In this document: positions 3,587 to 17,213 of the stretch, piece after piece | How positions within the stretch are numbered: position 1 is the stretch's first letter | How the letters are laid out: the number at the start of each line of letters is the position of its first letter | Origin: Variovorax saccharolyticus | Lineage (GTDB): Bacteria > Pseudomonadota > Gammaproteobacteria > Burkholderiales > Burkholderiaceae_C | NCBI RefSeq assembly: GCF_030316765.1 | Contig: NZ_JASZYT010000001.1 | Coordinates: forward strand, 682,001 to 746,000 | DNA length: 64,000 bases | Direction of reading: 5' to 3' | Position numbers and translations under genes: made by a program | The notes under the pieces: generated by a model | Databases searched by the model: none | Seen by the model: the letters and a program-made list of their open reading frames with translations, nothing else | Told to the model about the DNA's origin: nothing

Positions 3587-3663
3587 CGGTGTGTGGCGCA
3601 GCCTGGTAGCGCACTTGCATGGGGTGCAAGGGGTCGAAGGTTCGAATCCTTTCACACCGACCA
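3587..3663 (+). tRNA. tRNA-Pro (anticodon GGG)
   Basis: A 77-nt cloverleaf. The acceptor stem CGGTGTG pairs with CACACCG, followed by discriminator A and an encoded CCA end. The anticodon stem CTTGC/GCAAG encloses loop ATGGGGT, giving anticodon GGG at positions 34-36 after the invariant T33. The T arm carries GGTTCGAATCC. It reads proline codons CCC and CCU. It has its own -10 box and terminator, so it is a single-gene unit. Confidence 0.97.
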
Positions 3664-3680
3664 AAAACAAGAAACGGAAC

Positions 3681-3714
3681 AACGGCTTACGCCCACAAGG
3701 CGTAGGCCGTTTTT
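3681..3714 (+). terminator. Rho-independent terminator after tRNA-Pro
   Basis: AACGGCTTACGCC (3681-3693) pairs with GGCGTAGGCCGTT (3699-3711) as a 13-bp stem with one T-G wobble. The loop is CACAA and a T run follows at 3711-3714. It begins 18 bases after the tRNA CCA. Confidence 0.92.
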
Positions 3715-3759
3715 CTTTGCGCGAGGCGGGTTCGAGAAGGCCGCCAGAACCCGGACGGT

Positions 3760-3897
3760 TCAATCCCGGGTGACGAAAGCGACCAGTGCATTGAGCGCGA
3801 GCCACAATGTGCCGGCGCCCAGCAGGGCCAGCGCGGCCACGGTGACCCCGACGCTGCGCGCGCTGCCTCTTGCCTTCGAAGGAACGGTGACTCTCAT
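3760..3897 (-). CDS. 45-residue single-pass membrane protein
   Basis: A small ORF of 45 residues starting at ATG 3897 behind a strong ribosome site, AAAGGAG, 5 bases from the start. A basic N-terminus (MRVTVPSKARGSARS) is followed by one hydrophobic span, VGVTVAALALLGAGTLWLAL, and the tail NALVAFVTRD, which fits an N-in single-pass inner membrane peptide. It faces the tRNA terminator and is transcribed away from the ligase-like gene at 4125. I do not recognise a family. The longer frame back to 4140 was rejected because its extension is low in complexity and lacks a ribosome site. Confidence 0.6.
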   Translation of the reverse strand: MRVTVPSKARGSARSVGVTVAALALLGAGTLWLALNALVAFVTRD

Positions 3898-4083
3898 GGC
3901 GACTCCTTTCCGACGTCGTGAATCATGGCGCGAACTGCTCGCCGATGGAATGCCTTCATGCTGCGCGCTTCGCGCTTTTGCCGGCTTGCGCTGAATCAAA
4001 GTCCAGGAAAGCGGGCCTGGCTTGAGGAACGTCAACTCGATCCGGTCGGCGGCTGCCAAAGTCGCAGCTTCCAAGGAGCAGCG

Positions 4084-4128
4084 ATGAGCAGTGCCCTCCT
4101 CGACGGCGCGGGGACGCGGGCGGCATGA
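4084..4128 (+). CDS. Possible 14-codon upstream ORF coupled to the PaaK-like gene
   Basis: ATG at 4084 lies 5 bases behind a perfect AAGGAG (4073-4078), the strongest ribosome site in this stretch. It opens a frame of only 14 residues (MSSALLDGAGTRAA). Its TGA at 4126-4128 overlaps the ATG of the next gene as ATGA, and that gene has only a weak GCGGG site of its own. This arrangement suggests a leader peptide that couples translation to the ligase-like gene. It could instead mark a frameshift or sequencing error joining the ribosome site to the downstream frame. Confidence 0.4.
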   Translation: MSSALLDGAGTRAA

Positions 4129-5543
4129 GCCCGGTGGCACCGCCGCCGGTCGATCCGTGGCTGTCCGGTGCGGTCGCCGTCGATGTGGCGCTGGCCTCGC
4201 AGGCGACCGCCGACGCGATCGCCGACCGGCAGGCGCGCCGCCTGCGCGAACTGCTCGCTTCGGCCCGGCTGCACTCGCCGCTGTACCGGCGCCTGCTCAA
4301 GGGCTGCGAGCCGGGCACCGTGGGCCTGGCCGATCTGCCGCGCACACAGAAGGCCGAACTGATGGCGCGATTCGACGAATGGGTCGCCGACCCGCGCCTC
4401 AGGCTGGACGCGCTGCGCCGCTTCGTGGCCGACCGCCGGCGCATCGCCGACGCCTTTCTCGGGCGCTACGTGGTCTGGGAAAGCTCGGGCAGCAGCGGCG
4501 TTCCTGGCATCTTCGTCCAGGACGCGATGGCGATGGCGGTCTACGACGCGCTCGAGGCCGTGCGGCGGCCGGTCCTGCGTCCGCTGCAGCGATGGCTGGA
4601 CCCCTGGAGCCTGGGAGATCGCATCGCCTTCGTCGGTGCGACCGGGGGGCACTTCGCGAGCACGGTGTCGATCGAGCGCCTGCGTCGTCTCAATCCGGCG
4701 CTCTCGACCCGCCTGCAGGGCATCTCGTTCCTGCAGCCCGTCGAGGGCATCGTGGCGGCGTTGAACGACTTTGCGCCGAGCGTGATCGCCACCTACCCGA
4801 GCGCGGCGGCGCTGCTGGCCGAAGAGCGTTCGAGCGGGCGGCTGCGGGCGTCGCCGTCCGAAGTCTGGACCGGCGGCGAAGACCTGTCGGCGGCCAGGCG
4901 CGATTTCGTGGGCCGGGCCTTCGGCTGCCCCGTGACCAACAGCTATGGCGCCTCGGAGTTCCTGTCGATGGCGTCGGAGTGCCGGCATGGCCGGATGCAT
5001 TTCAACTGCGACTGGGCGATCCTCGAGCCCGTGGATGAAAGCGGCCGCGCAGTGGCGCCGGGAGAGCCTTGCGCGACGACGCTGCTCACCAACCTGGCGA
5101 ACCATGTGCAGCCCCTGATCCGATGCGACCTGGGCGACCAGGTCGTGCTGCAGGCACGCGGGTGCCCCTGCGGCTCGCCGCTGCCCGTGATCGACGTGCA
5201 GGGGCGCAGCGACGACACCCTGCGCCTGGGCCGCGGCGCTTCGGGCCCGGTCAGCGTGCTGCCGCTGGCGCTCAGCACGATGCTCGAGGAAGAGGCCGGC
5301 CTGTTCGACTTCCAGCTCGTGCAGCAGGGCCCCTGCGAACTGCTCCTGCGCACGGGCCTGTCGGGCCCAGAGGCAGAGGCCGCGCTGCTGCGCGCGCGCC
5401 GGGTGCTCGATGCCTTTCTCGAATCCCAGGGCGCCGCGGGCGTGCAGGTTCATTTGCGCAGCAGCGAGCCCGGCGACGCCGGCCGCAGCGGCAAGCTGAA
5501 GCGCGTGGTCGTGGCGCCGGACGGACGGCTTGGTGGTCCTTGA
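4125..5543 (+). CDS. PaaK/CapK-like adenylate-forming enzyme
   Basis: A 472-residue member of the phenylacetate-CoA ligase / coenzyme F390 synthetase branch of adenylate-forming enzymes. The Ser/Gly-rich phosphate loop ESSGSSGVPGIF is near residues 119-130, the adenine motif NSYGASEF near 272-279, and the ribose-binding Asp sits in RCDLGDQV near 328-335. A CxC pair (RGCPCGSPLP) recalls the zinc-knuckle region of this subfamily. Length fits the family. The substrate cannot be read: no other phenylacetate gene is nearby. It lies just upstream of the cyclase/encapsulin unit, but about 330 bases with their own AT-rich promoter region separate them. Confidence 0.8.
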   Translation: MSPVAPPPVDPWLSGAVAVDVALASQATADAIADRQARRLRELLASARLHSPLYRRLLKGCEPGTVGLADLPRTQKAELMARFDEWVADPRLRLDALRRFVADRRRIADAFLGRYVVWESSGSSGVPGIFVQDAMAMAVYDALEAVRRPVLRPLQRWLDPWSLGDRIAFVGATGGHFASTVSIERLRRLNPALSTRLQGISFLQPVEGIVAALNDFAPSVIATYPSAAALLAEERSSGRLRASPSEVWTGGEDLSAARRDFVGRAFGCPVTNSYGASEFLSMASECRHGRMHFNCDWAILEPVDESGRAVAPGEPCATTLLTNLANHVQPLIRCDLGDQVVLQARGCPCGSPLPVIDVQGRSDDTLRLGRGASGPVSVLPLALSTMLEEEAGLFDFQLVQQGPCELLLRTGLSGPEAEAALLRARRVLDAFLESQGAAGVQVHLRSSEPGDAGRSGKLKRVVVAPDGRLGGP

Positions 5544-5561
5544 GCCGCACTGCGTGGCGTG

Positions 5562-5621
5562 TTGAGTACTAAATTCTAGGCAGAACTGGTATCAATCAGT
5601 AATCTTCGGTAAAGTCCATTT
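5562..5621 (+). promoter_or_regulatory. AT-rich promoter region before the cyclase/encapsulin unit
   Basis: The stretch from about 5555 to 5621 is markedly richer in A+T than its surroundings. It holds TTGAGT (5562-5567) and an extended -10-like TGGTATCAA (5587-5595), although these two are 22 bases apart, too far for one ideal promoter. As the only AT-rich gap for 8 kb on this strand, it is the likely start of the 5622-13914 transcript. The exact start is not determined. Confidence 0.4.
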
Positions 5622-5876
5622 ATGCACCTCCTGCGACCCGTAGGGAGGGACTTCCGGGGCGGCACGCCGTTCACTCGTTCGCCTGTCGTGCATGATTCTG
5701 CCTGCGCGGCGCCTGGCGATCTGCGTGAACAGGCCAGCGCTGCCGCGGCTGGTCCCCACACCCTCTACCTCGATCCACGCGACCTCGTCGCCCGGGCCTG
5801 TGCGCTCCTCGCGCAGGAGACCGACGCCTGGAAAGAACGACAGCGTGCCGATCTGTTGCCGGGGAGTGGACGTTGA
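5622..5876 (+). CDS. Possible 84-residue protein heading the encapsulin unit
   Basis: An 84-codon frame that starts at the first ATG after the AT-rich region, ends in TGA at 5874-5876 and overlaps the TTG start of the cyclase by 4 bases (TTGA). The second half (LYLDPRDLVARACALLAQE...) looks helical and protein-like, with mostly G/C third bases; the first half does not. There is no clear ribosome site, so it could be leaderless. No family is recognised. The alternative is that 5544-5872 is simply the cyclase leader; then this 329-base gap holds only the promoter. Confidence 0.35.
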   Translation: MHLLRPVGRDFRGGTPFTRSPVVHDSACAAPGDLREQASAAAAGPHTLYLDPRDLVARACALLAQETDAWKERQRADLLPGSGR

Positions 5877-8800
5877 TCTGCCCCTCGTGCGCCTTTGCCA
5901 ACTCGGAGAGCGCGCGCTTTTGCGGTGGCTGCGGCGTACTCCTGGATTTCGCCGCGCAGCGCGCCGGCGGCGAGCGGCGGCAGATCACGGTGCTGACCTG
6001 CGACGTCGTCGGTTCGACCGCGCTGTCGCAGACGCTCGACCCCGAAGACCTGCATGAGATGCTCGCCGACTTCCAGCGGGTCTGCCAGGAGACGGCCGAG
6101 CGCTACGACGGCTATATCTCGCAGTTCCTCGGCGACGGCGTCCAGATCTATTTCGGCTTTCCGCGTGCGCACGAGGACGATGCCCGGCGCGCGGTGAGTT
6201 GCGGGCTCGAGATCCTCCAGGGGACGGAGCAGCTGAACCAGGCCGCGGCGCGTCCCTCGGGGGCGCGGCTGCGCATCCGGGTGGGTGCGGACACCGGCCG
6301 GGTGGTGGTCAGCCCGGTCGGGACCGGGGCGCGGCGCGAGAACATCGCGATGGGCGATGCGCCCAACATCGCGTCGCGCGTGCAGGCTCTCGCGGAGCCC
6401 GACTCGCTGTGGGTCACCGAAGCCACCTGGCGCATTGCCCAGGAGCACTTCCAGGGCGAGCCGCGCGGCGAGTTCGAACTGAAGGGCGTGGCCTCCGCGG
6501 TGCGCCTCTGGCGCGTGAACCGCGCCGGGGGCGTCGTCCCGGGCCTCGAGCGCGTCGATCTGCTGACCCTCTACGTCGGCCGCGGCCAGGAGCATGCGCT
6601 GCTGGCGGCGCACTGGACCGCTGCCCGGTCCGGTGCCGCGCGCTTCGTCACCCTGCGTGGCGAGCCGGGCATCGGCAAGTCGCGCCTGGTGGCCGAATTC
6701 CGGGGCGAGGCGGCGACTTCCGACACCATGGTGCTGGCCGCGCGTTGCACCCAGTACGCGAAGAACAGCGCCTTTCTTCCGGTCACCGAACTGCTCGAGC
6801 GGGTGCTGGCCCTCGATGGCGCGACCGAGGCCGCGGAACGCCTGGACCGCATGGACCAGCAACTCATGCTGCTCGGCATCGGGGCGGCCGACGCGGCGCC
6901 GCTGCTGGCGGCGCTGCTGTCGATTCCGCTCGACGACCGCTATCCGCCGCTGGAGCTGTCGCCCACGCGCCGGCGCGTGCGCACGATCGAGACGCTGGTC
7001 GCCGTCATCGAGGCCATCGCCCAGCGCAGTCCCACCATCCTGGTCGCCGAGGATCTCCACTGGGCCGACCCGTCGACGCTCGAAGTGCTCGACCTGCTGG
7101 TGGCCCGCGGCCGCCGCTTGCGACTGCTCGGCCTCTTCACGGCCCGACCGGAGTTCGAGCCGAACTGGTCGAACGGCGAGGCGACACCGCTGCTCGATGT
7201 CTCGCGCCTCGAGCATGCAGAGGTCGAGGCGGTGGTGCGCCACGTGGCGCACGGCAAGCCGGTCCCCGGTGACGTGATCCGCGAGATCATCCAGCGCTGC
7301 GACGGCGTGCCGCTGTTCATCGAGGAAGTGGCGCGGGCCGTGATCGAGGCGGGCGTGCTGCAGGAGAACGAATACTCGTGGACGCTCACCGGCGCGTTGC
7401 CGCTGGACCTGATCCCGGCCAGCGTCGATGCCTCGCTCATGGCGCGCATCGACCGGCTGGGCGAAGCCCGCGGCACTGCGCAGCTGGCGGCGACCATCGG
7501 GCGCGAGTTCACCTACGCGCAACTGCGCGCGGTCAGCGAGCGCACCGAGACCGAGATCAACGACGACCTGGAGCACATCCTGGCCGCGGGCCTGGCCTGG
7601 CAGGTGACCGAAACCTCTCCGACCACCTTCGTCTTCAAGCACGCGCTGGTCCAGATGGCGGCCTACGAATCGCTGCTGCGCTCGACGCGCCAGCGTTTCC
7701 ACGAGCGCATCGCGAGGGTGCTGCTGTCCGATTTCGGCGGCGAGGTGGCGCTTAGACCCGAAATCGTGGCACGCCACCTTTCAGGCGCCGGCCACCACGC
7801 CGAGGCCAGCGACCACTGGTTCGCGGCCGGACAGAGCGCCCTGGCGCGGATGGCGGTTCCCGAGGCGCACGGGCACTTGAGCCGGGCGCTCGACGGCCTG
7901 GCCAAGCTGCCGACCTCGGACGAGGTGCTGACCAAGGAAATGGAACTTCAGATCGCGATCGCACCGACGCTGATGACGCTGTACGGATGGGGTTCGCCCA
8001 CGGTCGCGGAGGCCTGCGAGCGGGCGCGCAGCCTGAGCCATCGGCTCGAGCGCCCCGACCGGCTCTACGAGCCGATCTGGGGCCTGTGGACCAACCTGTT
8101 CGTGGGCGGGCAGCTGGACCGCGCCCTGGAGACCGCGAACGAGGCGCTGTCGATGGCGCTGGCCAGCGGCGTGCCGATGCTGGAAGTGACGGGCCGGCAC
8201 GCGGTCTCCTACACGCGCTACTACCGCGCGGAGTGGGCCGAGTGCATCGAGCATGCGCACGCCGGCATCGCGCTCTATGCGCTGGACCAGGAAAGAGCGC
8301 TCACCAACACCTTCCAGATCAGCTCCACCGTCAACCTGGTGGCGGGACTGGCAAGCAGTCTCTGGATGACGGGCCACCAGGACCAGGGCCTGGCGGAGCT
8401 CGACCGGATGATCGCGATGGCGCGCGACCTGGACCATCCGTCGGCGCTGAGCAACGCGCTCGGTGTCGCCTGCTACATGCTGACCTTCCACCACGACCCG
8501 CCGCGGATGCTGGCCCATGCCGCGGAAGTGAAGAGCTTCGCGCGCGCCGAAGGATGGGAGCTCTGGTATGCGGTCGGCGTGATGAGCAGCGGGTGGGCGC
8601 GCCTGCGCCTGGGCGACCGGGTCGACGGCCTGAGGGAACTGTTCGAAGGCGTTGCGCTGTTCCGTGCCACGCGCTCCGATCTCATGGGACCGACCGTCGC
8701 CGTGATCCACGCGGAAGGGCTGCGGGCGGCCGGCCGCGACGACGAGGCGCTGGAGATGCTCGCCGCCACCGCCGAGACGGCCCGGCGCGGCCACGTCGGC

Positions 8801-9088
8801 GTGCTGCTGCCGGACGTCTACCGCCTGATGGGCGAGATTCATCTGCAGGCCGGTGCGCTGGCGCAGGCCGAGGCCGCCTTCGATCTGGCGCTGGAGACGG
8901 CGCGTGCGCAGCGGGCGCTGTCGCTCGAATTGCGCGCGGCGATGTCCTGCCATGCCCTGCTCGCGAAGACAGGCCGTGGCGCCGAGGGCGTGGCCCTGGT
9001 GCGGCACTGCCTGGAACGCTTCACCGACAGTTTCGACCAGCCCGAGTTGCGCGCCGCCAGCGCGCTGCTCGAAGGTGCCGGCCACTGA
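5873..9088 (+). CDS. Zinc-ribbon class III adenylate/guanylate cyclase fused to AAA ATPase and TPR domain
   Basis: A 1071-residue multidomain signalling protein. Residues 3-20 are a zinc ribbon (Cys3, Cys6, Cys17, Cys20). The cyclase domain spans about 36-200, with metal-binding Asp44 in TCDVVGSTA and Asp88 in FLGDGVQIYFG, and the Asn/Arg transition-state motif in GDAPNIASR. An AAA/STAND-like ATPase follows: Walker A RGEPGIGKSRL and Walker B TILVAEDLHWADP. The C-terminal ~450 residues are helical TPR-like repeats. It probably makes a cyclic nucleotide in the cytoplasm in response to a signal sensed by the ATPase/TPR part. TTG 5873 is taken as start because GGGGAG precedes it and the zinc ribbon begins at once. 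DUF3237 follows after 1 base. Confidence 0.88.
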   Translation: MICPSCAFANSESARFCGGCGVLLDFAAQRAGGERRQITVLTCDVVGSTALSQTLDPEDLHEMLADFQRVCQETAERYDGYISQFLGDGVQIYFGFPRAHEDDARRAVSCGLEILQGTEQLNQAAARPSGARLRIRVGADTGRVVVSPVGTGARRENIAMGDAPNIASRVQALAEPDSLWVTEATWRIAQEHFQGEPRGEFELKGVASAVRLWRVNRAGGVVPGLERVDLLTLYVGRGQEHALLAAHWTAARSGAARFVTLRGEPGIGKSRLVAEFRGEAATSDTMVLAARCTQYAKNSAFLPVTELLERVLALDGATEAAERLDRMDQQLMLLGIGAADAAPLLAALLSIPLDDRYPPLELSPTRRRVRTIETLVAVIEAIAQRSPTILVAEDLHWADPSTLEVLDLLVARGRRLRLLGLFTARPEFEPNWSNGEATPLLDVSRLEHAEVEAVVRHVAHGKPVPGDVIREIIQRCDGVPLFIEEVARAVIEAGVLQENEYSWTLTGALPLDLIPASVDASLMARIDRLGEARGTAQLAATIGREFTYAQLRAVSERTETEINDDLEHILAAGLAWQVTETSPTTFVFKHALVQMAAYESLLRSTRQRFHERIARVLLSDFGGEVALRPEIVARHLSGAGHHAEASDHWFAAGQSALARMAVPEAHGHLSRALDGLAKLPTSDEVLTKEMELQIAIAPTLMTLYGWGSPTVAEACERARSLSHRLERPDRLYEPIWGLWTNLFVGGQLDRALETANEALSMALASGVPMLEVTGRHAVSYTRYYRAEWAECIEHAHAGIALYALDQERALTNTFQISSTVNLVAGLASSLWMTGHQDQGLAELDRMIAMARDLDHPSALSNALGVACYMLTFHHDPPRMLAHAAEVKSFARAEGWELWYAVGVMSSGWARLRLGDRVDGLRELFEGVALFRATRSDLMGPTVAVIHAEGLRAAGRDDEALEMLAATAETARRGHVGVLLPDVYRLMGEIHLQAGALAQAEAAFDLALETARAQRALSLELRAAMSCHALLAKTGRGAEGVALVRHCLERFTDSFDQPELRAASALLEGAGH

Positions 9089-9089
9089 C

Positions 9090-9983
9090 ATGATCGCTGC
9101 GCCTGCGCCGGTGGCCTTCGACGCCTTGCCTGCGGAGGTGGAAGCCGGCACGCCGCTCGATGTCTGGTGGCAGGTGGCACCCGCTCACCCGAGCCACCGG
9201 CTGGAGGTCGAGCGGCGCGTGAACGGCGTCCGCAAGCCCTCGGTGCAGGCCTGGCCGGACGGGCTGCAGTCCGACCCCGGGTCGCAGCGCTTCCGGGCGC
9301 TGCTGCCGCCCTGCGAAGCCGGCGACGTGGTGGCGTACGAACCCGTGCTCTCGCGCGCGGGATTGGTGGTCGCCGAACTCCCGGGACGCCAGGTGCGCGC
9401 CGTGGCGCCGCGCGTCGCCGCGGGGGATGTCGCGCCGCAGTCCGCGCTGGTGACCGGCGTGGTGCCGCGCTATGACTGGGGCACGGACTTCCTGGGCGCC
9501 TTCACGGTCCAGCTCGCCAAGCCGCCCGAATCCTTCGGTCCGGCGCCGGACGGGCTGCACATCACCTTCTACATCGCTTCGGGCGAGATCCACGGCCCGC
9601 GGATCAACGCGCGAATCCGCGGCGAGGGCGGCGACTGGATGCTGGTGCGCCGCGATGGCGTCGGCGTCGCAGACGTGCGCATCACCTACGAAACCGACGA
9701 CGGCGCGCTGCTGCTGTCGCGCTACTACGGGATCTTCGACCTCGGCCCCGACGGCTACGAGCGCGCCCTGCGCAACGACTACGACCCGCTGCCCCCGCTG
9801 GTGCTGGCGCCGCAGTTCGTCACCTCGCACCCCAAGTGGCTGTGGCTGAACCGCCTGCAGTGCATCGCGGTCGGCCGGGTCACGATGGCCGACCTGCTGG
9901 TGCGCTTCGATCTCTATGCAGTCCGGGTCGGGCAGCCGCTGCCGTCTTCGGGGCTGCCGCGGGCACCCGACGGTGCCTCCTGA
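9090..9983 (+). CDS. Two-domain DUF3237 protein
   Basis: A 297-residue protein. The C-terminal half (from about residue 125) matches the DUF3237/UPF0311 beta-barrel: FTVQLAKPPESFGPAPDG, EIHGPRINARIRGEGGDWML and the ...LRNDYDPLPP...RLQCIAVGR end. Typical members are about 150 residues. Here ~120 extra N-terminal residues, predicted beta-rich (DVWWQVAPAHPSHRLEVERR), form an added domain I cannot name. ATG 9090 starts 1 base after the cyclase stop, so the two are translationally linked. No catalytic function is established for the family. Its place directly before the encapsulin suggests a cargo, ligand-binding or accessory role, which is inference. Confidence 0.75.
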   Translation: MIAAPAPVAFDALPAEVEAGTPLDVWWQVAPAHPSHRLEVERRVNGVRKPSVQAWPDGLQSDPGSQRFRALLPPCEAGDVVAYEPVLSRAGLVVAELPGRQVRAVAPRVAAGDVAPQSALVTGVVPRYDWGTDFLGAFTVQLAKPPESFGPAPDGLHITFYIASGEIHGPRINARIRGEGGDWMLVRRDGVGVADVRITYETDDGALLLSRYYGIFDLGPDGYERALRNDYDPLPPLVLAPQFVTSHPKWLWLNRLQCIAVGRVTMADLLVRFDLYAVRVGQPLPSSGLPRAPDGAS

Positions 9984-10022
9984 CTTCAATCCGGTAAACG
10001 AGAGCAACAACAAGGAGTTGAG

Positions 10023-10949
10023 ATGGCGGACAACAATCAGCAGGTTCCATGGACCGACGAGCAGTGGGCTCGAGTCCGCAAGACGATCCAGGAGGAGGCG
10101 GCGAGGGCCCGCATCGGCGCGCGCTTCCTGCCCCTGGTCGGGCCCTTGCCGGCCAGTACCGACTACGTGACGGCCGACGTCATCAGCTACGGCGACGGCA
10201 CCGGGGCGCCCAAGCTGCAGATCGAGGACAAGACCACGGTCCAGCTGCCGACACTGCAGGTGCGCGTGTTCCTGCGCGGCGCGCAGATGGCGGACCCGGA
10301 GCTGGACAGCGCCCTGCAGCTGTTCCGGCGCGCGGCGAACATCCTGGCTCGGCTCGAGGACAACATCGTGTTCGGCGGACTCGCCGGGCCGGGCGTCCTG
10401 CCTCCGCGGGCGTCGAAGGTGGCGCAGGTGCTGGGCGGCCAGTTGACCAACGGCCTGCTGCAGGCGAATCCGCCGGAAGAGGCCTACCTCGTCGATGCCA
10501 AGACCACCGGGAACCGGCTGGTGGGTGCCGTGTCGGACTGCATCGGCCAGCTCGAGGCGGACGGGCACTTCGGGCCGTTCGCGGTGGTCTTCGGCCATCA
10601 GTTCTTCACCGAAGTGCAGACGCCCGATCAGTCGTCGCTGGTGCTGCCGCAGGATCGGATCATTCCGTTTCTCGGCGGCGGACCGCTGCTGCGCACCTCG
10701 ACCCTGCCCGCGGAGACCGGCGTGGTCGTGGCCTTGGGCGCCGAGCCGGTCGAACTGGTCGTCGCGACCGATGTCTCGCTCAACTTCCTGCAGGTCACCG
10801 ACGAGCCGCAGTTCGTCTTCCGCGTCTACGAGAAGATCCTGCTGCGCATCAAGGAGGCCAAGGCCGTCAAGGTGATCCGGGTCAAGGGGAGCACCCCCTA
10901 CGACCCGGGCAAGGTCGTACTGCCGGAAGAAATCAAGAAGCCATCCTGA
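10023..10949 (+). CDS. Encapsulin nanocompartment shell protein (Linocin_M18-like, HK97 fold)
   Basis: A 308-residue protein that follows the classical (family 1) encapsulin layout. It has an N-terminal helix (WTDEQWARVRKTIQEEAARA), the R-F-x-x-x-x-GP turn (ARFLPLVGPLP), the core strand LPTLQVRVFLRG, the helix ending ARLEDNIVFGGLAG (compare AEFEDEVIFRG in the Thermotoga shell protein), and the C-terminal strand run DVSLNFLQV...FVFRVYEKILLRI. It should self-assemble into an icosahedral cytoplasmic shell. A strong AAGGAG (10012-10017) precedes ATG 10023, fitting high expression of a coat protein. The FAD/prenyl synthase fusion follows after 1 base and is the likely cargo. There are no phage terminase, portal or protease genes nearby. 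A ~25-residue C-terminal extension is unusual. Automatic pipelines may label it a bacteriocin. Confidence 0.88.
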   Translation: MADNNQQVPWTDEQWARVRKTIQEEAARARIGARFLPLVGPLPASTDYVTADVISYGDGTGAPKLQIEDKTTVQLPTLQVRVFLRGAQMADPELDSALQLFRRAANILARLEDNIVFGGLAGPGVLPPRASKVAQVLGGQLTNGLLQANPPEEAYLVDAKTTGNRLVGAVSDCIGQLEADGHFGPFAVVFGHQFFTEVQTPDQSSLVLPQDRIIPFLGGGPLLRTSTLPAETGVVVALGAEPVELVVATDVSLNFLQVTDEPQFVFRVYEKILLRIKEAKAVKVIRVKGSTPYDPGKVVLPEEIKKPS

Positions 10950-10950
10950 G

Positions 10951-13914
10951 ATGAAGCCTGAAAAGGTCGTCATCCTCGGCGGTGGCGTGGCCGGCATGAG
11001 CGCGGCCCACGAGTTGATCGAGCGCGGCTTCGAGGTGGTCGTGCTCGAGCGCCGCGACATCGCCGGCGGCAAGGCGCGCAGCATCCCGGTGAGCGACAAC
11101 GACGACGGCGGCGCCGGCCACGAGCTGGCCGACCGCGGCGTGGCCGACATCGAGCACCGCCTGCCGGGCGAGCACGGCTTTCGTTTCTTCCCGGGCTTCT
11201 ACAAGCACGTGGTCGACACCATGCGGCGCATTCCGTCCTTCGACGGCCGCCCGGTGGCCGACCATCTGGTGGCGACCACGCGCGTCGGCTTCACGCAGTA
11301 CGACCAGCCGACCTTCGTGGTGCCAGCGAACTTTCCGCAGACGCCCGGCGATGCCGGCACGGTGCTGCGCGACATCCTGCTGGCCTTCGGCCCGATCACC
11401 GGGCTCACGCCCGACGACCTGGCCTTCTTCGGTTCGCGGATCTGGCAGATCATGACCTCGTGCGAGCAGCGCCGGCTCGACGAATACGAGAGCATCAACT
11501 GGTGGGATTTCATTGGCGCCGAGGAACGCTCGACGGCCTACAAGAAGTTCCTCGGCGACGGCATCACGCGCTCGCTGGTGGCGGCCAAGGCGAGGCGCGC
11601 CAGCGCGCGGACCATCGGCGACATCTTCACGCAATTGATGCTGACGATCGTCAACCCGACCGGCGGATCGACCGACCGGGTGCTCGACGGCCCGACCAAC
11701 CTGATCTGGATCGACCCCTGGCTGAGCTACCTGCAGTCGCGCGGCGTGCAGTACCACTTCAACACCGAGGTCCAGCAGATTCTGTGCGCGGGCGACCAGG
11801 TGAGCGGCATCGTGGTGTCGGAGAACGGCGTGCGAACCGTGGTGCGGGGCGATCACTACATCGCCGCCGTGCCGCTCGAGCGCATGGCCGTGCTGGTCAA
11901 CGACGACCTGCTGGCGGCCGACGCTTCGCTCGCCAATCTGCGCACGCTGGCGCCGAACGTCGAATGGATGAACGGCGTGCAGTACTACCTGTACCGCGAC
12001 ATTCCCGAGGTGCATGGCCACGTGATTCACATCGATTCCGAGTGGGCGCTGACCAGCATCTCCCAGTTCCCGTTCTGGCGCAGCGTGGTGCCGACGATGC
12101 TTGCCTGCGGCCACGTCAAGGACATCATTTCGGTCGATGTCTCCGACTGGACCGCGCCGGGTCCCGACGGCCGGCCCGCCATGCAGTGCTCGCGCGATGA
12201 AGTGGCGCGCGAGACCTGGCGGCAGCTCAAGCGCTCGCTCAACACCGAGCAGGAGATCCTGCGCGATGAGGACCTGCACTCGTGGTTCCTGGACTCCGAC
12301 ACCCAGCCCGACCCCACGCGCCCCGGCTTCCTCGCCAATGCCGAGCCGCTGCTCGTGAACCTGGTCGATACCTGGGCCCTGCGGCCCGAAGCGGCCACCG
12401 GCCTGTCGAACCTGTTCCTCGCCTCGGACTACGTGCGCACGCACACCGACCTGGCCACGATGGAAGGGGCCAACGAGGCGGCGCGGCGGGCGGTCAATTC
12501 GCTGCTGGATGCGGTGGCTTTCGCGGGGCCGCGCTGCGAGGTCTGGCCGCTCCAGGAAGTGGAAGTGCTGACGCCCTGGCGGCTGCACGACGCCGCCCGC
12601 CACCGCGCCGGATTGCCCTGGGACGCATCGCTGTCGCAGGTGGCCCTGCAGGCGCTGCGCGCCGCATCGCCGCTGCTCGACCAGGTGGCGCCGCTGATGG
12701 CCGCCGTGACGCCTTACGCCACCCCCGTGGCGGATGCGCTGGATGCCGCCGACCAGGCACTGCAGCGTTCCGGCGCCGGCCTGGGCGACGACCCGGCAGT
12801 CCGCAAGGGCTCCGTCTACGTGCCGGCACCGCTCGAGAACGTGCTGAGGGTGACCGATCGCGTGCCCGGCAGCGGCGACATCACGGGGCCGGGCGGCTTC
12901 GTCGAGCGCCTGGCCTGGTACCGCGGCCTGATCACCGAGACCCTGGAGTCCGGCGTGCCCGCCTGGGAGCCGCAGTCCCACCTGTACGCGCTGGTGAAGG
13001 ATTTCATGTCGCGCTCGGGCAAGGGCCTGCGGCCGGCGCTGTGCATCGCAACGACACGCGCGCTGGGCGGGCGCGCCGAGCACGCGCTGCCGGCGGCCGC
13101 CGGCATCGAGATGCTGCACAACGCCTTTCTGGTCCATGACGACATCGAGGACGGCAGCGAGTCGCGGCGGGGCGTGCCGACCATGCACCGTCGTGCCGGC
13201 ATCCCGCTGGCGGTCAACACGGGCGATGCGATGAACGCGCTGGCGATGCGCCTGATGCGGCGCAGCGGCGAGTTCGTGGGTCCGGCCGGCACCTTGCGCA
13301 TCCTCGACGAGATCGACCACATGCTGATGGAGACGCTCGAGGGCCAGGCCATGGAACTGGGCTGGGTGCGCGACAACGACCTCTCCGTCGGCACCGACGA
13401 CTACCTGCGGCTGGCGCTCAAGAAGACCGCCTGGTACAGCTTCATCCACCCGCTGCGCATCGGTGCGCTGGTCGCGAACCCCGAGGATCCGAAGCTGGAC
13501 CGCTTCGACCGCTTTGGCTATCTGCTGGGCCTGGCCTTCCAGATCACGGACGACGTGCTCAACCTGAGCGGCGACGAATCGCGCTACGGCAAGGAGATCG
13601 ATGGCGACCTGTGGGAAGGCAAGCGCACGCTGGTGTTGACGCATGCGCTGTCGCACGCGGGCCGCAGCGACCGTGACTGGATGAGCCATTTCCTGTCGCG
13701 ACCGCGCGAGCGGCGCCTGCCGCGCGAAGTGCTGCGGCTGCACGACATCGTGGTCGGAACCGGGAGCATCGAATGGGCCAGGCAATCGGCCGTCGCGCTG
13801 GCCGAGGCGGCGGCGCAGGAGTTCGATGCATCGGCCTTCGCCGGTGCGGCGCCCGGGCCGGACCTGGACTGGCTGCGCGCCAGCGTGGACTACCTGGTGC
13901 AGCGCGATTCGTAG
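10951..13914 (+). CDS. FAD amine-oxidase/desaturase-like domain fused to trans-polyprenyl diphosphate synthase
   Basis: A 987-residue bifunctional protein. Residues 1 to ~545 are an FAD-dependent amine oxidase/phytoene-desaturase-like domain: Rossmann motif ILGGGVAGMSAAHEL at 8-22, then LERRDIAGG, GEHGFRFFPGFYKHV near 71-85 and C-terminal FAD loop SNLFLASDYVRT...MEGANEAARRA. An Ala/Pro-rich linker covers about 546-680. Residues ~680-985 are a trans-isoprenyl diphosphate synthase: GKGLRPA, first Asp-rich motif DDIED at 730-734, second motif DDVLN at 867-871 and GKEIDGDLWEGKRTL. It would condense isopentenyl units and oxidise an isoprenoid; substrates are unknown. ATG 10951 is 1 base after the encapsulin stop. 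No canonical encapsulin targeting peptide is seen at either end. Confidence 0.88.
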   Translation: MKPEKVVILGGGVAGMSAAHELIERGFEVVVLERRDIAGGKARSIPVSDNDDGGAGHELADRGVADIEHRLPGEHGFRFFPGFYKHVVDTMRRIPSFDGRPVADHLVATTRVGFTQYDQPTFVVPANFPQTPGDAGTVLRDILLAFGPITGLTPDDLAFFGSRIWQIMTSCEQRRLDEYESINWWDFIGAEERSTAYKKFLGDGITRSLVAAKARRASARTIGDIFTQLMLTIVNPTGGSTDRVLDGPTNLIWIDPWLSYLQSRGVQYHFNTEVQQILCAGDQVSGIVVSENGVRTVVRGDHYIAAVPLERMAVLVNDDLLAADASLANLRTLAPNVEWMNGVQYYLYRDIPEVHGHVIHIDSEWALTSISQFPFWRSVVPTMLACGHVKDIISVDVSDWTAPGPDGRPAMQCSRDEVARETWRQLKRSLNTEQEILRDEDLHSWFLDSDTQPDPTRPGFLANAEPLLVNLVDTWALRPEAATGLSNLFLASDYVRTHTDLATMEGANEAARRAVNSLLDAVAFAGPRCEVWPLQEVEVLTPWRLHDAARHRAGLPWDASLSQVALQALRAASPLLDQVAPLMAAVTPYATPVADALDAADQALQRSGAGLGDDPAVRKGSVYVPAPLENVLRVTDRVPGSGDITGPGGFVERLAWYRGLITETLESGVPAWEPQSHLYALVKDFMSRSGKGLRPALCIATTRALGGRAEHALPAAAGIEMLHNAFLVHDDIEDGSESRRGVPTMHRRAGIPLAVNTGDAMNALAMRLMRRSGEFVGPAGTLRILDEIDHMLMETLEGQAMELGWVRDNDLSVGTDDYLRLALKKTAWYSFIHPLRIGALVANPEDPKLDRFDRFGYLLGLAFQITDDVLNLSGDESRYGKEIDGDLWEGKRTLVLTHALSHAGRSDRDWMSHFLSRPRERRLPREVLRLHDIVVGTGSIEWARQSAVALAEAAAQEFDASAFAGAAPGPDLDWLRASVDYLVQRDS

Positions 13915-13938
13915 CGCAGTGCGGAGTCGCTCGCGCTC

Positions 13939-14223
13939 TCAGGCGGCCTCTGCGAGCGCTTTGACGGCGACGAAGTCGGCCGGCGCGAGCATCACCGGGA
14001 TCTGCGGAGTGGCCGCGTAGCGGTCCAGCGCCTTGGCCTCGATGAGGCCGAAATTCTGCTGGCAGGCGGCGATCAGGCTGGCTTCGGCCTGCACGGCGCC
14101 GAAGTGCCGGCGCAGCGCGCTGCCCGAGATGCGGGCCATGATGCGAGGTCCATCGAAACCGTCGGGGTAGATCGCAAACCTGACGCTGTCCGTGTCTGGA
14201 CAATGGATCGCTTCGCAGTTCAT
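13939..14223 (-). CDS. DUF1488 family protein
   Basis: A 94-residue protein matching DUF1488 by pattern: V-R-F-x-I start, G-x-R-I-x-A-R-I-S core, RRHFGA, then the C-terminal N-F-x-x-I-E-x-K-A-L-D-R-Y helix. ATG 14223 has AAAGGAG 6 bases upstream. The gene faces the end of the encapsulin operon, 24 bases away, with no obvious terminator between. Function is unknown for the family. It probably marks the right edge of the accessory unit rather than a part of it. Confidence 0.75.
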   Translation of the reverse strand: MNCEAIHCPDTDSVRFAIYPDGFDGPRIMARISGSALRRHFGAVQAEASLIAACQQNFGLIEAKALDRYAATPQIPVMLAPADFVAVKALAEAA

Positions 14224-14340
14224 CTCGTGCTCCTTTTTTTGTTCGCAACGTATTTGACGCGCGCGAAACGAAAGGAGGGCGCGGAGAACTTCGCCTTGCG
14301 AGGACAGCGCACGCCTACAGCGTGCAAGGCTCCGGCCGGG

Positions 14341-14880
14341 TCAGCGCAGGGTGCCGTTGAGGTAGGGCTCGGGATCGACCGCCACGCCCTGCTTGCGGAT
14401 CTCGAAATGCAGCTTCACGCGGTCGGCGTCGCTGCTGCCGATCTCGGCGATCTTCTGGCCCTGGCGCACCACGTCTTTTTCCTTGACCAGGATGGTCTTG
14501 GCATGGGCATAGGCGGTGAGATAGGTGTCGTTGTGCTGGATGATGACCATGTTGCCGTAGCCGCGCAGTTCACCACCCACGTAGACCACGCGGCCGTCGG
14601 CTGCCGCCAGCACCGGGTCGCCCAGGTTGCCTGCGATGTCGACGCCCTTGTTGCGCGTGCCGTCGAAGCCCGAGATCGTGCGGCCCGGGGCCGGGCGGAT
14701 GAAGATCGCCTGCGGCTTCGGCGGCGTGACGGCCGGCGGGGCGGGCTGGGCTGCCGGCGGCAAGGGGTAGAAGGGCGGACTCGAGCTCTTCGGCGGTGTC
14801 GAGCAGGCCACCAGGGCGGCTATCGCGATGGCCGTGCCTGCGAAGGCAGCGGCGCGAGAGAGGGAGTTCTGGATGTGCAT
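14341..14880 (-). CDS. NlpD-like lipoprotein with degenerate LytM (M23) domain
   Basis: A 179-residue outer-membrane lipoprotein candidate: signal peptide with lipobox LVAC near residues 23-26, a Pro-rich linker, then an M23/LytM domain (about 65-179). The domain matches E. coli NlpD almost motif by motif: RNKGVDIAG, ADGRVVYVG, LRGYGNMVIIQH, AYAH and KLHFEIR. The first zinc ligand, a His in active M23 enzymes, is Asn here (NKGVD), as in NlpD. It is therefore probably an activator of a cell-wall amidase in division rather than a hydrolase. It lacks an evident LysM domain. ATG 14880 gives the signal peptide; the longer frame is antisense read-through of the ABC gene. Confidence 0.85.
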   Translation of the reverse strand: MHIQNSLSRAAAFAGTAIAIAALVACSTPPKSSSPPFYPLPPAAQPAPPAVTPPKPQAIFIRPAPGRTISGFDGTRNKGVDIAGNLGDPVLAAADGRVVYVGGELRGYGNMVIIQHNDTYLTAYAHAKTILVKEKDVVRQGQKIAEIGSSDADRVKLHFEIRKQGVAVDPEPYLNGTLR

Positions 14881-14948
14881 GGCTTTTTTGGAACGTGGTC
14901 GCGGCGAAGGGTTCCCCGGCGCGTGACCGGCCCCTGGTTTTAGCATGC

Positions 14949-16721
14949 TCAAGCCGGGGCGGGTGCGACCATCCGTTGCAGCAGCGGCTGGCGCGCCAGC
15001 ACGAGCTCGCGCGGACCGGCATCGATCACCTTGCCGGCTTCCATCAGCACCACCGTGTCGAAGCGCGCCAGCAGGCTCAGGCGGTGGATCGACGCCACCA
15101 CGCAGGCATCGGGGAAGGCGGCCGCGATGCGTTCCAGCACCCGCGCCTCGGTGGCCGCATCCAGCGCGCTGGTCGGCTCGTCGAGCAGCAGCAGCGAACT
15201 GCCGCGTGCCGCCAGCACGCCGCGGGCGAGGCACAGCCGCTGCCGCTGGCCGCCCGACAGGTTGAAGCCGCGCTCGGACAGCGGCGTGTCGAGGTCGCCG
15301 TGGGTTGCCTGCAGCACTTCGTCGAAGGTGCTGGCATGCATCGCGGCGTGCAGTTCGTCGTCGCTGGCGGGCTGGCCGAAGCCGAGGTTCTCGCGCACGC
15401 TGGCCTCGAACACCTCGGTCTCCTGCGGGATCAGCGTGACCAGGTTGCGCAGCCGCGGCCAGGGCTGCGGCTGGCCGTCGATGGCCAGCGTGCCGTGCTG
15501 CGGCGCATAGAGTCCGGCCAACACGCGCAAGAGCGTACTCTTGCCGCCGCCGCTGGGGCCGACCAGCGCGACCCGCTGGCCGCGGCCCAGTGCCAGCGAC
15601 ACCCGGTGCAGTCCGCTGCGCGCGCCTTCGGCCGCAACCGGCGTGCCGCGCGGGTCGTAGCGCCAGACCAGGTCTTCGATCGAGAGCGTGCGCCACGACG
15701 CATCGGTGTCGATGCCTTCCGCGGCCATGTCCCGAACCCGTTCGGGCGCCTGCCACAGCGGTGCCGCGCTGTTGTAGTCGGTGTGCATGCGGGCGAAGAA
15801 CTGGAAATTCGCGGCCATCGAGGAGACCACGCTCGCCGCCTGCTGCGCGTACTGGTAGATCATGAACACCGCGCCCAGCAGCACCGCCTGGCCTGGCGCG
15901 CGCGACTGCCACACGTAGACCACGACCAGCCCCCAGGTCAGCGCCAGTCCCAGGATGTCGACCGCGAACCACTTGCCCTCGTTGAGCACCACCGTGCGCC
16001 TGAGCGGCACCGAGATCGCGGCCATGCGCCGGCCCAGCAGCACCCGCGATGCCGCCGACAGGCGCAGGCCGATCACGGTCGAGGCATTGCCGAGGAAGTC
16101 GAGCAGCGCGGCCACGTAGCGGCGGTCGGCGTCGTTCTCGGCCCGTGCCAGCCGCATCAGGGCGCGATCGAAGCGCAAGACCAGGATCGCGATGACCACA
16201 TAGCCGGTGATGGCGATCGCGCCGCTGGTGCGCGACAGCAGGGTCAGCGCAACCAGCGGCCCGATGAAATTGACGATGTTCGTGAGGTAGACGAACTGGT
16301 TCTGTGCGAAGTCCGACAGGGCCTTGCTGGCCTGGTGCACGCGATGCTGCAGTTCGCCCGAGTGGTGGCTGTCGTGCCAGGCGAGGGGCGCCGCCGCGAT
16401 GCGGCCATAGAGCGTGTCGGCGAGCCGCTCGCGGACCCGCAGGCCGACATTGCGCTCGAGGACGCGGCCGGGTCCGTGGACCAGCCAGGACGCGAGATAG
16501 ATGCCCGCCAGCGCGGCGATCCAGCGGCCCGAAACTTCGAAGTCGCCGGTCTGCAAGGCGTTGATCGCCTGCGCCGCGAGCCAGGGCATCGTGAGCCGCA
16601 GCAGCTGCGAGCCGGTCAGCAGCGCGGTGGCGGCCAGCAGCTGCGGCCGGACGCCCTCGGCGTAGTGCCAGAGCGCGCCGTAGAGCTCACGGATTGCGTT
16701 GCCGGGCGCGCTGCTGCTCAT
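14949..16721 (-). CDS. ABC exporter, fused permease and ATPase
   Basis: A 590-residue type IV (exporter-like) half transporter: about six membrane spans in residues 20-310 and an ATPase domain at 340-590. The latter has Walker A GPSGGGKST (about 386-394), a Q-loop, signature LSGGQRQRL (about 487) and Walker B LLLLDEPTSALD. It would work as a homodimer exporting a lipid, peptide or drug; the sequence does not tell which. It is last in a minus-strand run after Nudix and creA, starting 15 bases beyond the creA stop on that strand, so co-transcription is likely. The NlpD-like gene follows after 68 bases. Confidence 0.88.
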   Translation of the reverse strand: MSSSAPGNAIRELYGALWHYAEGVRPQLLAATALLTGSQLLRLTMPWLAAQAINALQTGDFEVSGRWIAALAGIYLASWLVHGPGRVLERNVGLRVRERLADTLYGRIAAAPLAWHDSHHSGELQHRVHQASKALSDFAQNQFVYLTNIVNFIGPLVALTLLSRTSGAIAITGYVVIAILVLRFDRALMRLARAENDADRRYVAALLDFLGNASTVIGLRLSAASRVLLGRRMAAISVPLRRTVVLNEGKWFAVDILGLALTWGLVVVYVWQSRAPGQAVLLGAVFMIYQYAQQAASVVSSMAANFQFFARMHTDYNSAAPLWQAPERVRDMAAEGIDTDASWRTLSIEDLVWRYDPRGTPVAAEGARSGLHRVSLALGRGQRVALVGPSGGGKSTLLRVLAGLYAPQHGTLAIDGQPQPWPRLRNLVTLIPQETEVFEASVRENLGFGQPASDDELHAAMHASTFDEVLQATHGDLDTPLSERGFNLSGGQRQRLCLARGVLAARGSSLLLLDEPTSALDAATEARVLERIAAAFPDACVVASIHRLSLLARFDTVVLMEAGKVIDAGPRELVLARQPLLQRMVAPAPA

Positions 16722-16736
16722 CCGGGGGTGTCCGCG

Positions 16737-17213
16737 CTACTTCAGCGGGATCGGCGTTGCGCGATCGATGGGCACCGCGGTGACCGCGTTCTTCGGCGAG
16801 CCGTCGATCAGCAGGTCGGAGTAGGTCAGGTAGACCAGCGTGTTGCGCCTGGGATCGACCATGCGCACCACGCGCAGCCGCTTGAAGAGAATCGACTGCC
16901 GCTCGCTGTAGACCTCCTCGCGCTTGGGCAGCGGCTGGGTCACGCTGACCGGGCCGACCTGACGGCAGGCGATCGAGGCCTCGGCCTTGTCCTCGGCCAG
17001 GCCCAGCGCGCCCGAGACGCCGCCGGTCCTGGCGCGCGAGACATAGCAGGTCACGCCGCTGACCTTCGGGTCGTCGTAGGCCTCGACCACGATCTTGTGG
17101 TCGGGGCCGATGAGCTTGAAGGCGGTGTCGACCTCGCCGATCGGCTCGGCCACGGCGCTGGTGGCGGCGCATGCGGACCAGAGCAGGAGCTGCAGGCCAA
17201 GCGCGCGCTTCAT
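16737..17213 (-). CDS. creA: CreA family periplasmic protein
   Basis: A 158-residue secreted protein with a signal peptide ([20 protein letters not shown], cut near AVAEP). The CreA pattern is clear: [36 protein letters not shown], and the end [20 protein letters not shown]. Two cysteines (TCYV and IACRQ) may form a disulfide. The ATG at 17213-17211 overlaps the Nudix stop as ATGA, so they are translationally coupled. Family function is poorly defined; in E. coli the gene lies beside the CreBC two-component system, which is absent here. Confidence 0.9.

What the first reader, a model, noticed from the sequence alone, without database searches (positions are those of the whole stretch)
10023..13914. 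Encapsulin shell gene joined to an isoprenoid/redox fusion enzyme: candidate new nanocompartment
The 308-residue protein has the classical Linocin_M18 encapsulin layout (N-terminal helix, R-F-x4-GP turn, L-x-E-D-x-I-x-x-G helix end, C-terminal strand run). The next gene, 1 base later, encodes an FAD oxidoreductase fused to a trans-polyprenyl diphosphate synthase. Well-described family 1 cargos are peroxidases, ferritin-like and hemerythrin-like proteins. Polyprenyl transferases and terpene cyclases are associated with family 2B shells, which look different. Isoprenoid chemistry inside a family 1-like shell would be a new pairing and suggests sequestering a reactive or hydrophobic isoprenoid.
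Basis: partly seen in the sequence, partly recalled or inferred. Interest (0 to 1): 0.93.

Follow-up and report, generated by a model that had tools for sequence, protein, structure and literature searches.

The report
Protein-shell compartment for isoprenoid chemistry
A few bacteria from different orders carry one conserved gene set in which a protein-cage (encapsulin) gene sits beside genes predicted to make and oxidise isoprenoids, so these cells likely run greasy-molecule chemistry inside a cage type that is otherwise best known for iron storage and peroxidases.

The parts
5873..9088 (+). Class III nucleotide cyclase / AAA-16 protein, 1071 aa (start codon TTG, uncertain), first gene of the set
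   Evidence: Guanylate_cyc 71.8 bits, AAA_16 76.8 bits; NCBIfam TOMM_kin_cyc 479.9 bits against a cut-off of 705.75. Homologue near the shell by tblastn in L002, L003, L004, L011, L023 and by annotation in L024; L015 has a different cyclase-TPR protein
9090..9983 (+). DUF3237 protein, 297 aa, with about 130 extra N-terminal residues; starts 1 base after the cyclase stop
   Evidence: PF11578 80.6 bits, residues 137-278; start read from sequence; present in 8 of 8 loci
10012..10017 (+). Shine-Dalgarno-like AAGGAG before the shell gene
   Evidence: sequence
10023..10949 (+). Encapsulin shell protein, 308 aa
10951..13914 (+). FAD enzyme - prenyl diphosphate synthase fusion, 987 aa
   Evidence: model mean pLDDT 75.2, pTM 0.58, so the placement of the domains to each other is not reliable
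10951..12525 (+). FAD domain, residues 1-525, phytoene-desaturase-like
12658..12882 (+). Predicted disordered linker, residues 570-644
   Evidence: pLDDT below 50
12892..13911 (+). Prenyl diphosphate synthase domain, about residues 648-987
13138..13152 (+). First aspartate-rich motif D-D-I-E-D (residues 730-734)
   Evidence: D730, D731, E733 and D734 at 90% or more in the 55-row alignment
13549..13563 (+). Second aspartate-rich motif D-D-V-L-N (residues 867-871)
   Evidence: D867, D868, L870 and N871 at 90% or more

Best explanation
This is a conserved run of four genes, likely one operon, that encodes an encapsulin shell protein, a predicted prenyl diphosphate synthase/FAD enzyme fusion, a DUF3237 protein and a predicted nucleotide cyclase, and it likely builds a nanocompartment that would make and oxidise an isoprenoid inside the shell. 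Inferred steps: small soluble IPP and allylic diphosphates would enter through the shell pores; the synthase domain is predicted to extend them, perhaps to C20; the tethered phytoene-desaturase-like FAD domain is predicted to oxidise the prenyl chain or its derivative without release; the DUF3237 protein, whose relatives include decarboxylases of aromatic compounds, likely acts on the same product or its acceptor. The greasy, oxidation-prone product would be held in the lumen. The cyclase protein is probably regulatory and outside the shell. Shown by computation: shell fold (predicted model), domain identities, catalytic motifs, gene layout and its conservation. Not shown: assembly, cargo loading, chemistry.
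Against: No canonical targeting peptide found at the termini or in the linker of the fusion: five stricter patterns match 0 of 122 rows there (one of them matches once elsewhere); the bare triplet GSL is in 5 of 122 linkers, 22 of 122 anywhere and no terminus. The DUF3237 C-terminal peptide is missing in the window, in its seven closest listed relatives (P0241-P0247) and in L004 and L011, so loading in this organism has no identified signal. A ninth shell locus that I read, the divergent Nitrosospira plasmid shell (25% identity), lists none of the partner genes (annotation table only). A protein of about 108 kDa is a large cargo for a small shell (inference). No phytoene synthase lies in the gene set, so the FAD substrate is unknown. 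FAD relatives occur without a shell: none listed beside them on two haloarchaeal plasmids, none by tblastn on a Nocardia plasmid stretch, none in genome G743. The shell scores just below the NCBIfam Family 1 cut-off. The fusion model is of middling confidence.
Confidence: 0.6

Rival explanations
1. The shell encloses only the DUF3237 protein, the one component in which I found a conserved C-terminal peptide across many relatives; the prenyl synthase/FAD enzyme works outside and feeds it.
For: C-terminal L-I-G-D-[VI]-H-type peptide after a variable spacer in 72 of 120 listed DUF3237 relatives; on 17 contigs that pair a shell with a DUF3237 by length a looser form of it is present in 13; no tag found in the fusion.
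Against: The peptide is absent in the window's lineage and in L004 and L011, which keep the gene set. The disordered linker or the split FAD tails could carry an unrecognised signal.
Confidence: 0.2
2. The shell gene is a domesticated or decaying phage capsid and its place beside the enzymes carries no compartment function.
For: Encapsulins share the HK97 fold with phage capsids (PMC8346489 abstract). The gene set lies in a variable region behind a tRNA gene.
Against: No match in 50,697 phage records at E 0.01, no PHROGs family, no viral contig for the fusion, Family 1 shells lead the fold matches, and the same gene set recurs in 8 of 8 loci of the clade.
Confidence: 0.03
3. The gene set is a signalling or defence module: the cyclase makes a second messenger and the shell and enzymes are its effector.
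For: PADLOC Pycsar cyclase models match the cyclase weakly (best 63.1 bits); accessory, patchy distribution (4 of 101 genomes of the genus, own included) in a variable region next to a tRNA gene.
Against: Pycsar models match class III cyclase domains in general (inference); no PADLOC family on the shell or DUF3237 protein, and only a desaturase-type match on the fusion; a biosynthetic enzyme pair is an unusual effector.
Confidence: 0.07
4. The enzymes are peripheral: the shell protein forms particles that scaffold or hold a membrane-associated prenyl enzyme on the outside, without luminal loading.
For: No luminal targeting signal found on the fusion.
Against: No precedent known to me for an encapsulin of this type; the N-terminal helix that helps form the targeting-peptide cleft in encapsulins (PMC11202242 passage) is conserved here.
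Confidence: 0.1

Closest known systems
Family 1 (classical) encapsulin systems, e.g. Myxococcus xanthus EncA; T. maritima encapsulin with ferritin-like protein
   Different: No DyP, ferritin-like, hemerythrin or cytochrome partner among the four genes; partners are prenyl synthase, FAD enzyme, DUF3237 and cyclase; no canonical targeting peptide found
Family 2B encapsulin systems with polyprenyl transferase or terpene cyclase cargo
   Same: Prenyl diphosphate synthase beside an encapsulin; the synthase domain's best NCBIfam hit is the Family 2 cargo model, 198.2 bits (cut-off 450)
   Different: No cyclic-nucleotide-binding domain found in the shell, whose only NCBIfam match is the Family 1 model; a free-standing nucleotide cyclase lies in the gene set instead; the synthase is fused to or paired with an FAD enzyme
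Plant phytoene desaturase (5mog)
   Different: 18% identity; 50.4 bits against an NCBIfam phytoene desaturase cut-off of 569.4; no phytoene synthase in the gene set
Thermus thermophilus GGPP synthase (1wmw)
   Same: Fold, 35% identity and both aspartate-rich motifs
   Different: Tethered to an FAD domain; product length untested
DUF3237 decarboxylases PhcF and PhcG, and PinX
   Same: DUF3237 domain for PinX as the paper states, which is 42% and 38% identical to PhcG and PhcF (PMC12607616 passages); the window protein has the same Pfam domain
   Different: About 130 extra N-terminal residues and, in many relatives, a conserved C-terminal peptide; substrate unknown

Membership tests
Family 1 encapsulin | Linocin_M18 / HK97-fold shell protein over its full length | tested here: met
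   PF04454 residues 6-272, 83.8 bits; model aligned 1-289 to encapsulins
Family 1 encapsulin | Closer to Family 1 shells than to phage capsids | tested here: met
Family 1 encapsulin | NCBIfam NF041155 curated cut-off (100 bits) | tested here: not met
   96.3 bits; relatives from Variovorax, Ruegeria, Thiohalocapsa and Gemmatimonadaceae are named Family 1 by NCBI. I therefore call it a Family-1-type shell, not a canonical Family 1 system
Family 1 encapsulin | Cargo with a terminal GSL-type targeting peptide | tested here: not met
   0 of 122 fusion rows at linker or termini for the stricter patterns; the DUF3237 relatives have a different C-terminal peptide in 72 of 120, absent in the window
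Family 1 encapsulin | Self-assembly into an icosahedral shell with enclosed cargo | not testable with these tools
   needs expression and electron microscopy
Family 2B encapsulin | Cyclic-nucleotide-binding-like domain inserted in the shell E-loop | tested here: not met
   Linocin_M18 is the only Pfam family found in the 308-aa protein at E 0.001
HK97-type phage capsid / prophage | Relatives in phages | tested here: not met
   shell; fusion in viral contigs:
trans-prenyl diphosphate synthase | Two aspartate-rich motifs in the all-helical fold | tested here: met
GGPP synthase | C20 product | not testable with these tools
   nearest structure is a GGPP synthase; needs an assay
Phytoene desaturase | Family-level sequence match (NCBIfam TIGR02731) | tested here: not met
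   50.4 bits, cut-off 569.4; fold match only
HpnE hydroxysqualene dehydroxylase | NCBIfam TIGR03467 cut-off | tested here: not met
   87 bits, cut-off 283.05; another gene in the genome meets it (320 bits)
Pycsar defence system | Cyclase next to a Pycsar effector | tested here: not met
   Weak PycC matches on the cyclase; none on the shell or DUF3237 protein; the fusion matches only a desaturase-type model at 30.8 bits

The most novel reading that the evidence does not exclude
A cyclic-nucleotide-linked isoprenoid organelle built on a Family-1-type shell: evolution has twice put prenyl synthases into encapsulins, once in Family 2B with a cyclic-nucleotide-type domain in the shell, and here independently with a free nucleotide cyclase beside the shell, loading cargo through a new C-terminal tag, L-I-G-D-[VI]-H, on a DUF3237 enzyme.
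Probability: 0.35. Interest if true: 0.88.

Novelty: new variant of a known kind. Interest (0 to 1): 0.78.

Why it matters
Known Family 1 encapsulins are tied mainly to iron storage and peroxidase chemistry (PMC8346489, Family 1 section); prenyl and terpene enzymes were assigned to Family 2B (passages). A second pairing of encapsulin and prenyl chemistry, on another shell type, would suggest that caging hydrophobic or oxidation-prone isoprenoids is a recurring solution. It offers a compact system to test what encapsulation does for isoprenoid enzymes, a candidate new loading tag, and a prenyl synthase-desaturase-like fusion whose product is unknown.

Tried and rejected
Phage origin: no match for the shell in the phage collection, none for the fusion in viral contigs, no PHROGs hit. 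HpnE role of the FAD domain: rejected, another gene meets the HpnE cut-off. Canonical targeting peptide in the fusion: searched in 122 rows (120 listed proteins, one of which is the window's own, plus the window and L004), result above. Likeness of the 164/165-aa proteins next to the shell in L004 and L015: none found. Pycsar/defence: only weak cyclase matches.

Counting. Eight loci are counted; duplicate views dropped before the count: L001, L005, L009, L018, L026 (window), L006, L007, L019, L020 (same genomes as L002, L003), L008 (L015), L017 (L004), L021 (L023). A ninth locus with a shell hit, Nitrosospira L022 (25% identity), was left out as outside the clade; its annotation table lists none of the partners. 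L010, L012-L014 and L016 are FAD relatives, not shell loci.

Genome surveys, own genome included: shell in 4 of 61; shell profile in 4 of 101 of the genus and in 1 of 297 of the Hyphomicrobiales MAG's order, the MAG itself; fusion in 1 of 369 of the class, the own genome (E limit 1e-150) and 2 of 398 of the phylum, the own genome and an FAD-only match (E limit 1e-100). Those strict limits can miss split forms. Plasmids: shell in 3 of 72,556 records, FAD part of the fusion in 10.

Length-sharing test: lengths were typed from the listings; 119 of 120 fusion entries went in (one was missed in typing) and the 119 of 120 DUF3237 entries that have a length. Only the best 120 of each search are listed, so the fractions are lower bounds, and the sequences are related, so they are not independent events.

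An aromatic residue at shell position 39 goes with the DUF3237 tail (11 of 13 pairs with the tail, 0 of 4 without; counted by eye; notebook entry 5 says 10, which was a miscount). The pairs are few and related, so I draw no conclusion.

The shell model used 64 of the 120 listed relatives plus 3 loci, the fusion model 50 of 120 plus 4 rows from loci.
Full report
The observation. The first hits PF04454 at 83.8 bits (cut-off 24.3) and the NCBIfam Family 1 encapsulin model at 96.3 bits (cut-off 100). The second holds Amino_oxidase (13-518) and polyprenyl_synt (677-917).

The gene set. Two more genes belong to it: a cyclase/AAA protein at 5873-9088 and a DUF3237 protein at 9090-9983, one base apart; the DUF3237-shell gap is 39 bases. 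That it is one operon is inferred from strand and spacing. Genome comparison supports these limits: L002 matches window 5546-13913 and L003 5562-13917 as one block, while neither matches the DNA just to the left. Between the window and L002 the fusion differs at 68, 32 and 232 first, second and third codon positions (206 synonymous and 85 non-synonymous codons), as expected of a gene under purifying selection.

Related loci. Eight distinct loci were read, all of them also found by searching with the shell. Window, Variovorax sp. J22P271 (L002) and V. ginsengisoli (L003): cyclase, DUF3237, shell, fusion. Hyphomicrobiales MAG (L004): DUF3237, shell of 349 aa with an insertion, a 164-aa protein, fusion, SAM-cyclase-AAA. 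Two Ruegeria plasmids (L011, L024): cyclase, shell, DUF3237, FAD enzyme, prenyl synthase as separate genes (L024 by annotation only). A further genome of the window's genus (L023): the same split order with a 174-aa and a 662-aa protein, and a cyclase homologue nearby on the other strand. So shell, DUF3237, FAD and prenyl synthase occur together in 8 of 8; the cyclase homologue in 7 of 8 (one by annotation) and another cyclase in the eighth. Shell identities to the window run from 87% down to 33%. A ninth shell hit that I read, a Nitrosospira plasmid shell at 25% identity, has other neighbours; I take it to lie outside the clade. Fused and split states on the same gene set suggest that the fusion arose from adjacent genes or was split later; either way the partners stayed with the shell.

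Wider association. In the protein database, exact contig lengths are shared between shell hits and fusion hits (16 of 50 shell contigs of 7 kb or more; shifted-length controls 0-2 over all 120) and between DUF3237 hits and either (22 of 61 of 4 kb or more; controls 0-1). Only the best 120 of each list were available, so these are lower bounds; the sequences are related, so they are not independent events. In species-level genomes the system is patchy: 4 of 101 genomes of the genus, 1 of 297 in the MAG's order.

Cargo signals. Encapsulin cargos carry a short targeting peptide, usually C-terminal, bound in a cleft made with the shell's N-terminal helix (PMC11202242 passage); published Family 1 examples are PLTVGSLRRGG and the consensus DGSLGIGSLKG (PMC7925596 passages). 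Five stricter patterns of that kind match 0 of 122 fusion rows in the linker or termini (one matches once elsewhere); the bare triplet GSL is in 5 of 122 linkers, in 22 of 122 anywhere and in no terminus. Many DUF3237 proteins do carry a conserved extreme C-terminus: of 120 listed relatives 105 have a GLP anchor near the end, and 72 end within six residues of L-[IVPATN]-G-[DE]-[VIAT]-H after a variable spacer. This looks like a targeting peptide, but the window and the seven listed relatives closest to it (P0241-P0247) lack it, as do L004 and L011. So for this organism the loading signal is unknown, and cargo status of the fusion rests on gene-neighbourhood logic alone. The split FAD proteins of L015 and L023 end in V-E-I-[VI]-P-N after a variable stretch, another candidate (by eye).

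Mechanism. The most likely reading is a compartment in which a prenyl diphosphate is made and oxidised by tethered active sites and handed to a DUF3237 enzyme. DUF3237 relatives include decarboxylases in lignin-dimer catabolism (PhcF, PhcG; PinX, predicted and consistent with a deletion mutant) (PMC12607616 passages), which hints at an aromatic or quinone-like partner. The cyclase probably links the compartment to a signal. All of this paragraph is inference except the cited passages.

Known or new. The large Family 1 survey (PMC8346489; Family 1 section read in full; other passages) names no isoprenoid or FAD cargo; 90 systems are left unassigned there and shown in a supplement that I did not read, so the pairing may lie there unremarked. 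Searches of the paper library for encapsulin with polyprenyl/family 1/cargo, geranylgeranyl, terpen, prenyl, phytoene, adenylate cyclase/operon, FAD-dependent and isoprenoid, and for DUF3237 and UPF0311 alone, showed, in the listings and the passages opened, no description of this system; one search listed 20 of 24 papers, and most subscription papers, including the 2022 encapsulin review that I tried to open, are not held. NCBI's annotation already names several relatives 'family 1 encapsulin'. I rate it a new variant of a known kind: known shell type, new partner set.

Setting. The gene set lies downstream of a tRNA-Pro gene (3587-3663). In four relatives without it (L031-L034; no shell match), the match to the window stops at or up to 66 bases past that tRNA, and in L033 the right flank (14353-16945) resumes about 15 kb away. 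It is accessory DNA in a variable region.

Noticed in passing
window 3587-3663 and about 3664-14350: Variable region behind tRNA-Pro(GGG): homology with four relatives lacking the gene set stops at or just past the tRNA; in one the right flank resumes about 15 kb on.
   Followed up: partly
L022 (Nitrosospira sp. NRS527 plasmid NZ_AP024516.1), 7995-8918: A divergent encapsulin gene (25% identity) lies between genes annotated as SpvB/TcaC and neuraminidase-like; an odd neighbourhood for an encapsulin.
   Followed up: no
L015 4298-6388 and L023 3790-5778: Two proteins of 696 and 662 aa that look alike by eye lie beside the split-type gene sets; the L015 one has no Pfam or NCBIfam match.
   Followed up: no
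L004 11081-11575, L015 9448-9945, L023 8806-9330: Small 164-174-aa proteins of unknown kind directly after the shell gene in three loci; the L004 and L015 ones are not alike, and the L015 and L023 ones look alanine-rich by eye; possible extra cargo.
   Followed up: partly
L016 (G743) 10250-13009: An FAD-domain relative with a long C-terminal region without Pfam match, 919 aa in all, in a genome without a PF04454 match.
   Followed up: no
P0095: A shell relative with an added C-terminal stretch and the Pfam domain PF01833.
   Followed up: no
window 4125-5543: A protein with weak acyl/AMP-ligase matches lies just upstream; the stretch is not matched in L002 or L003.
   Followed up: partly
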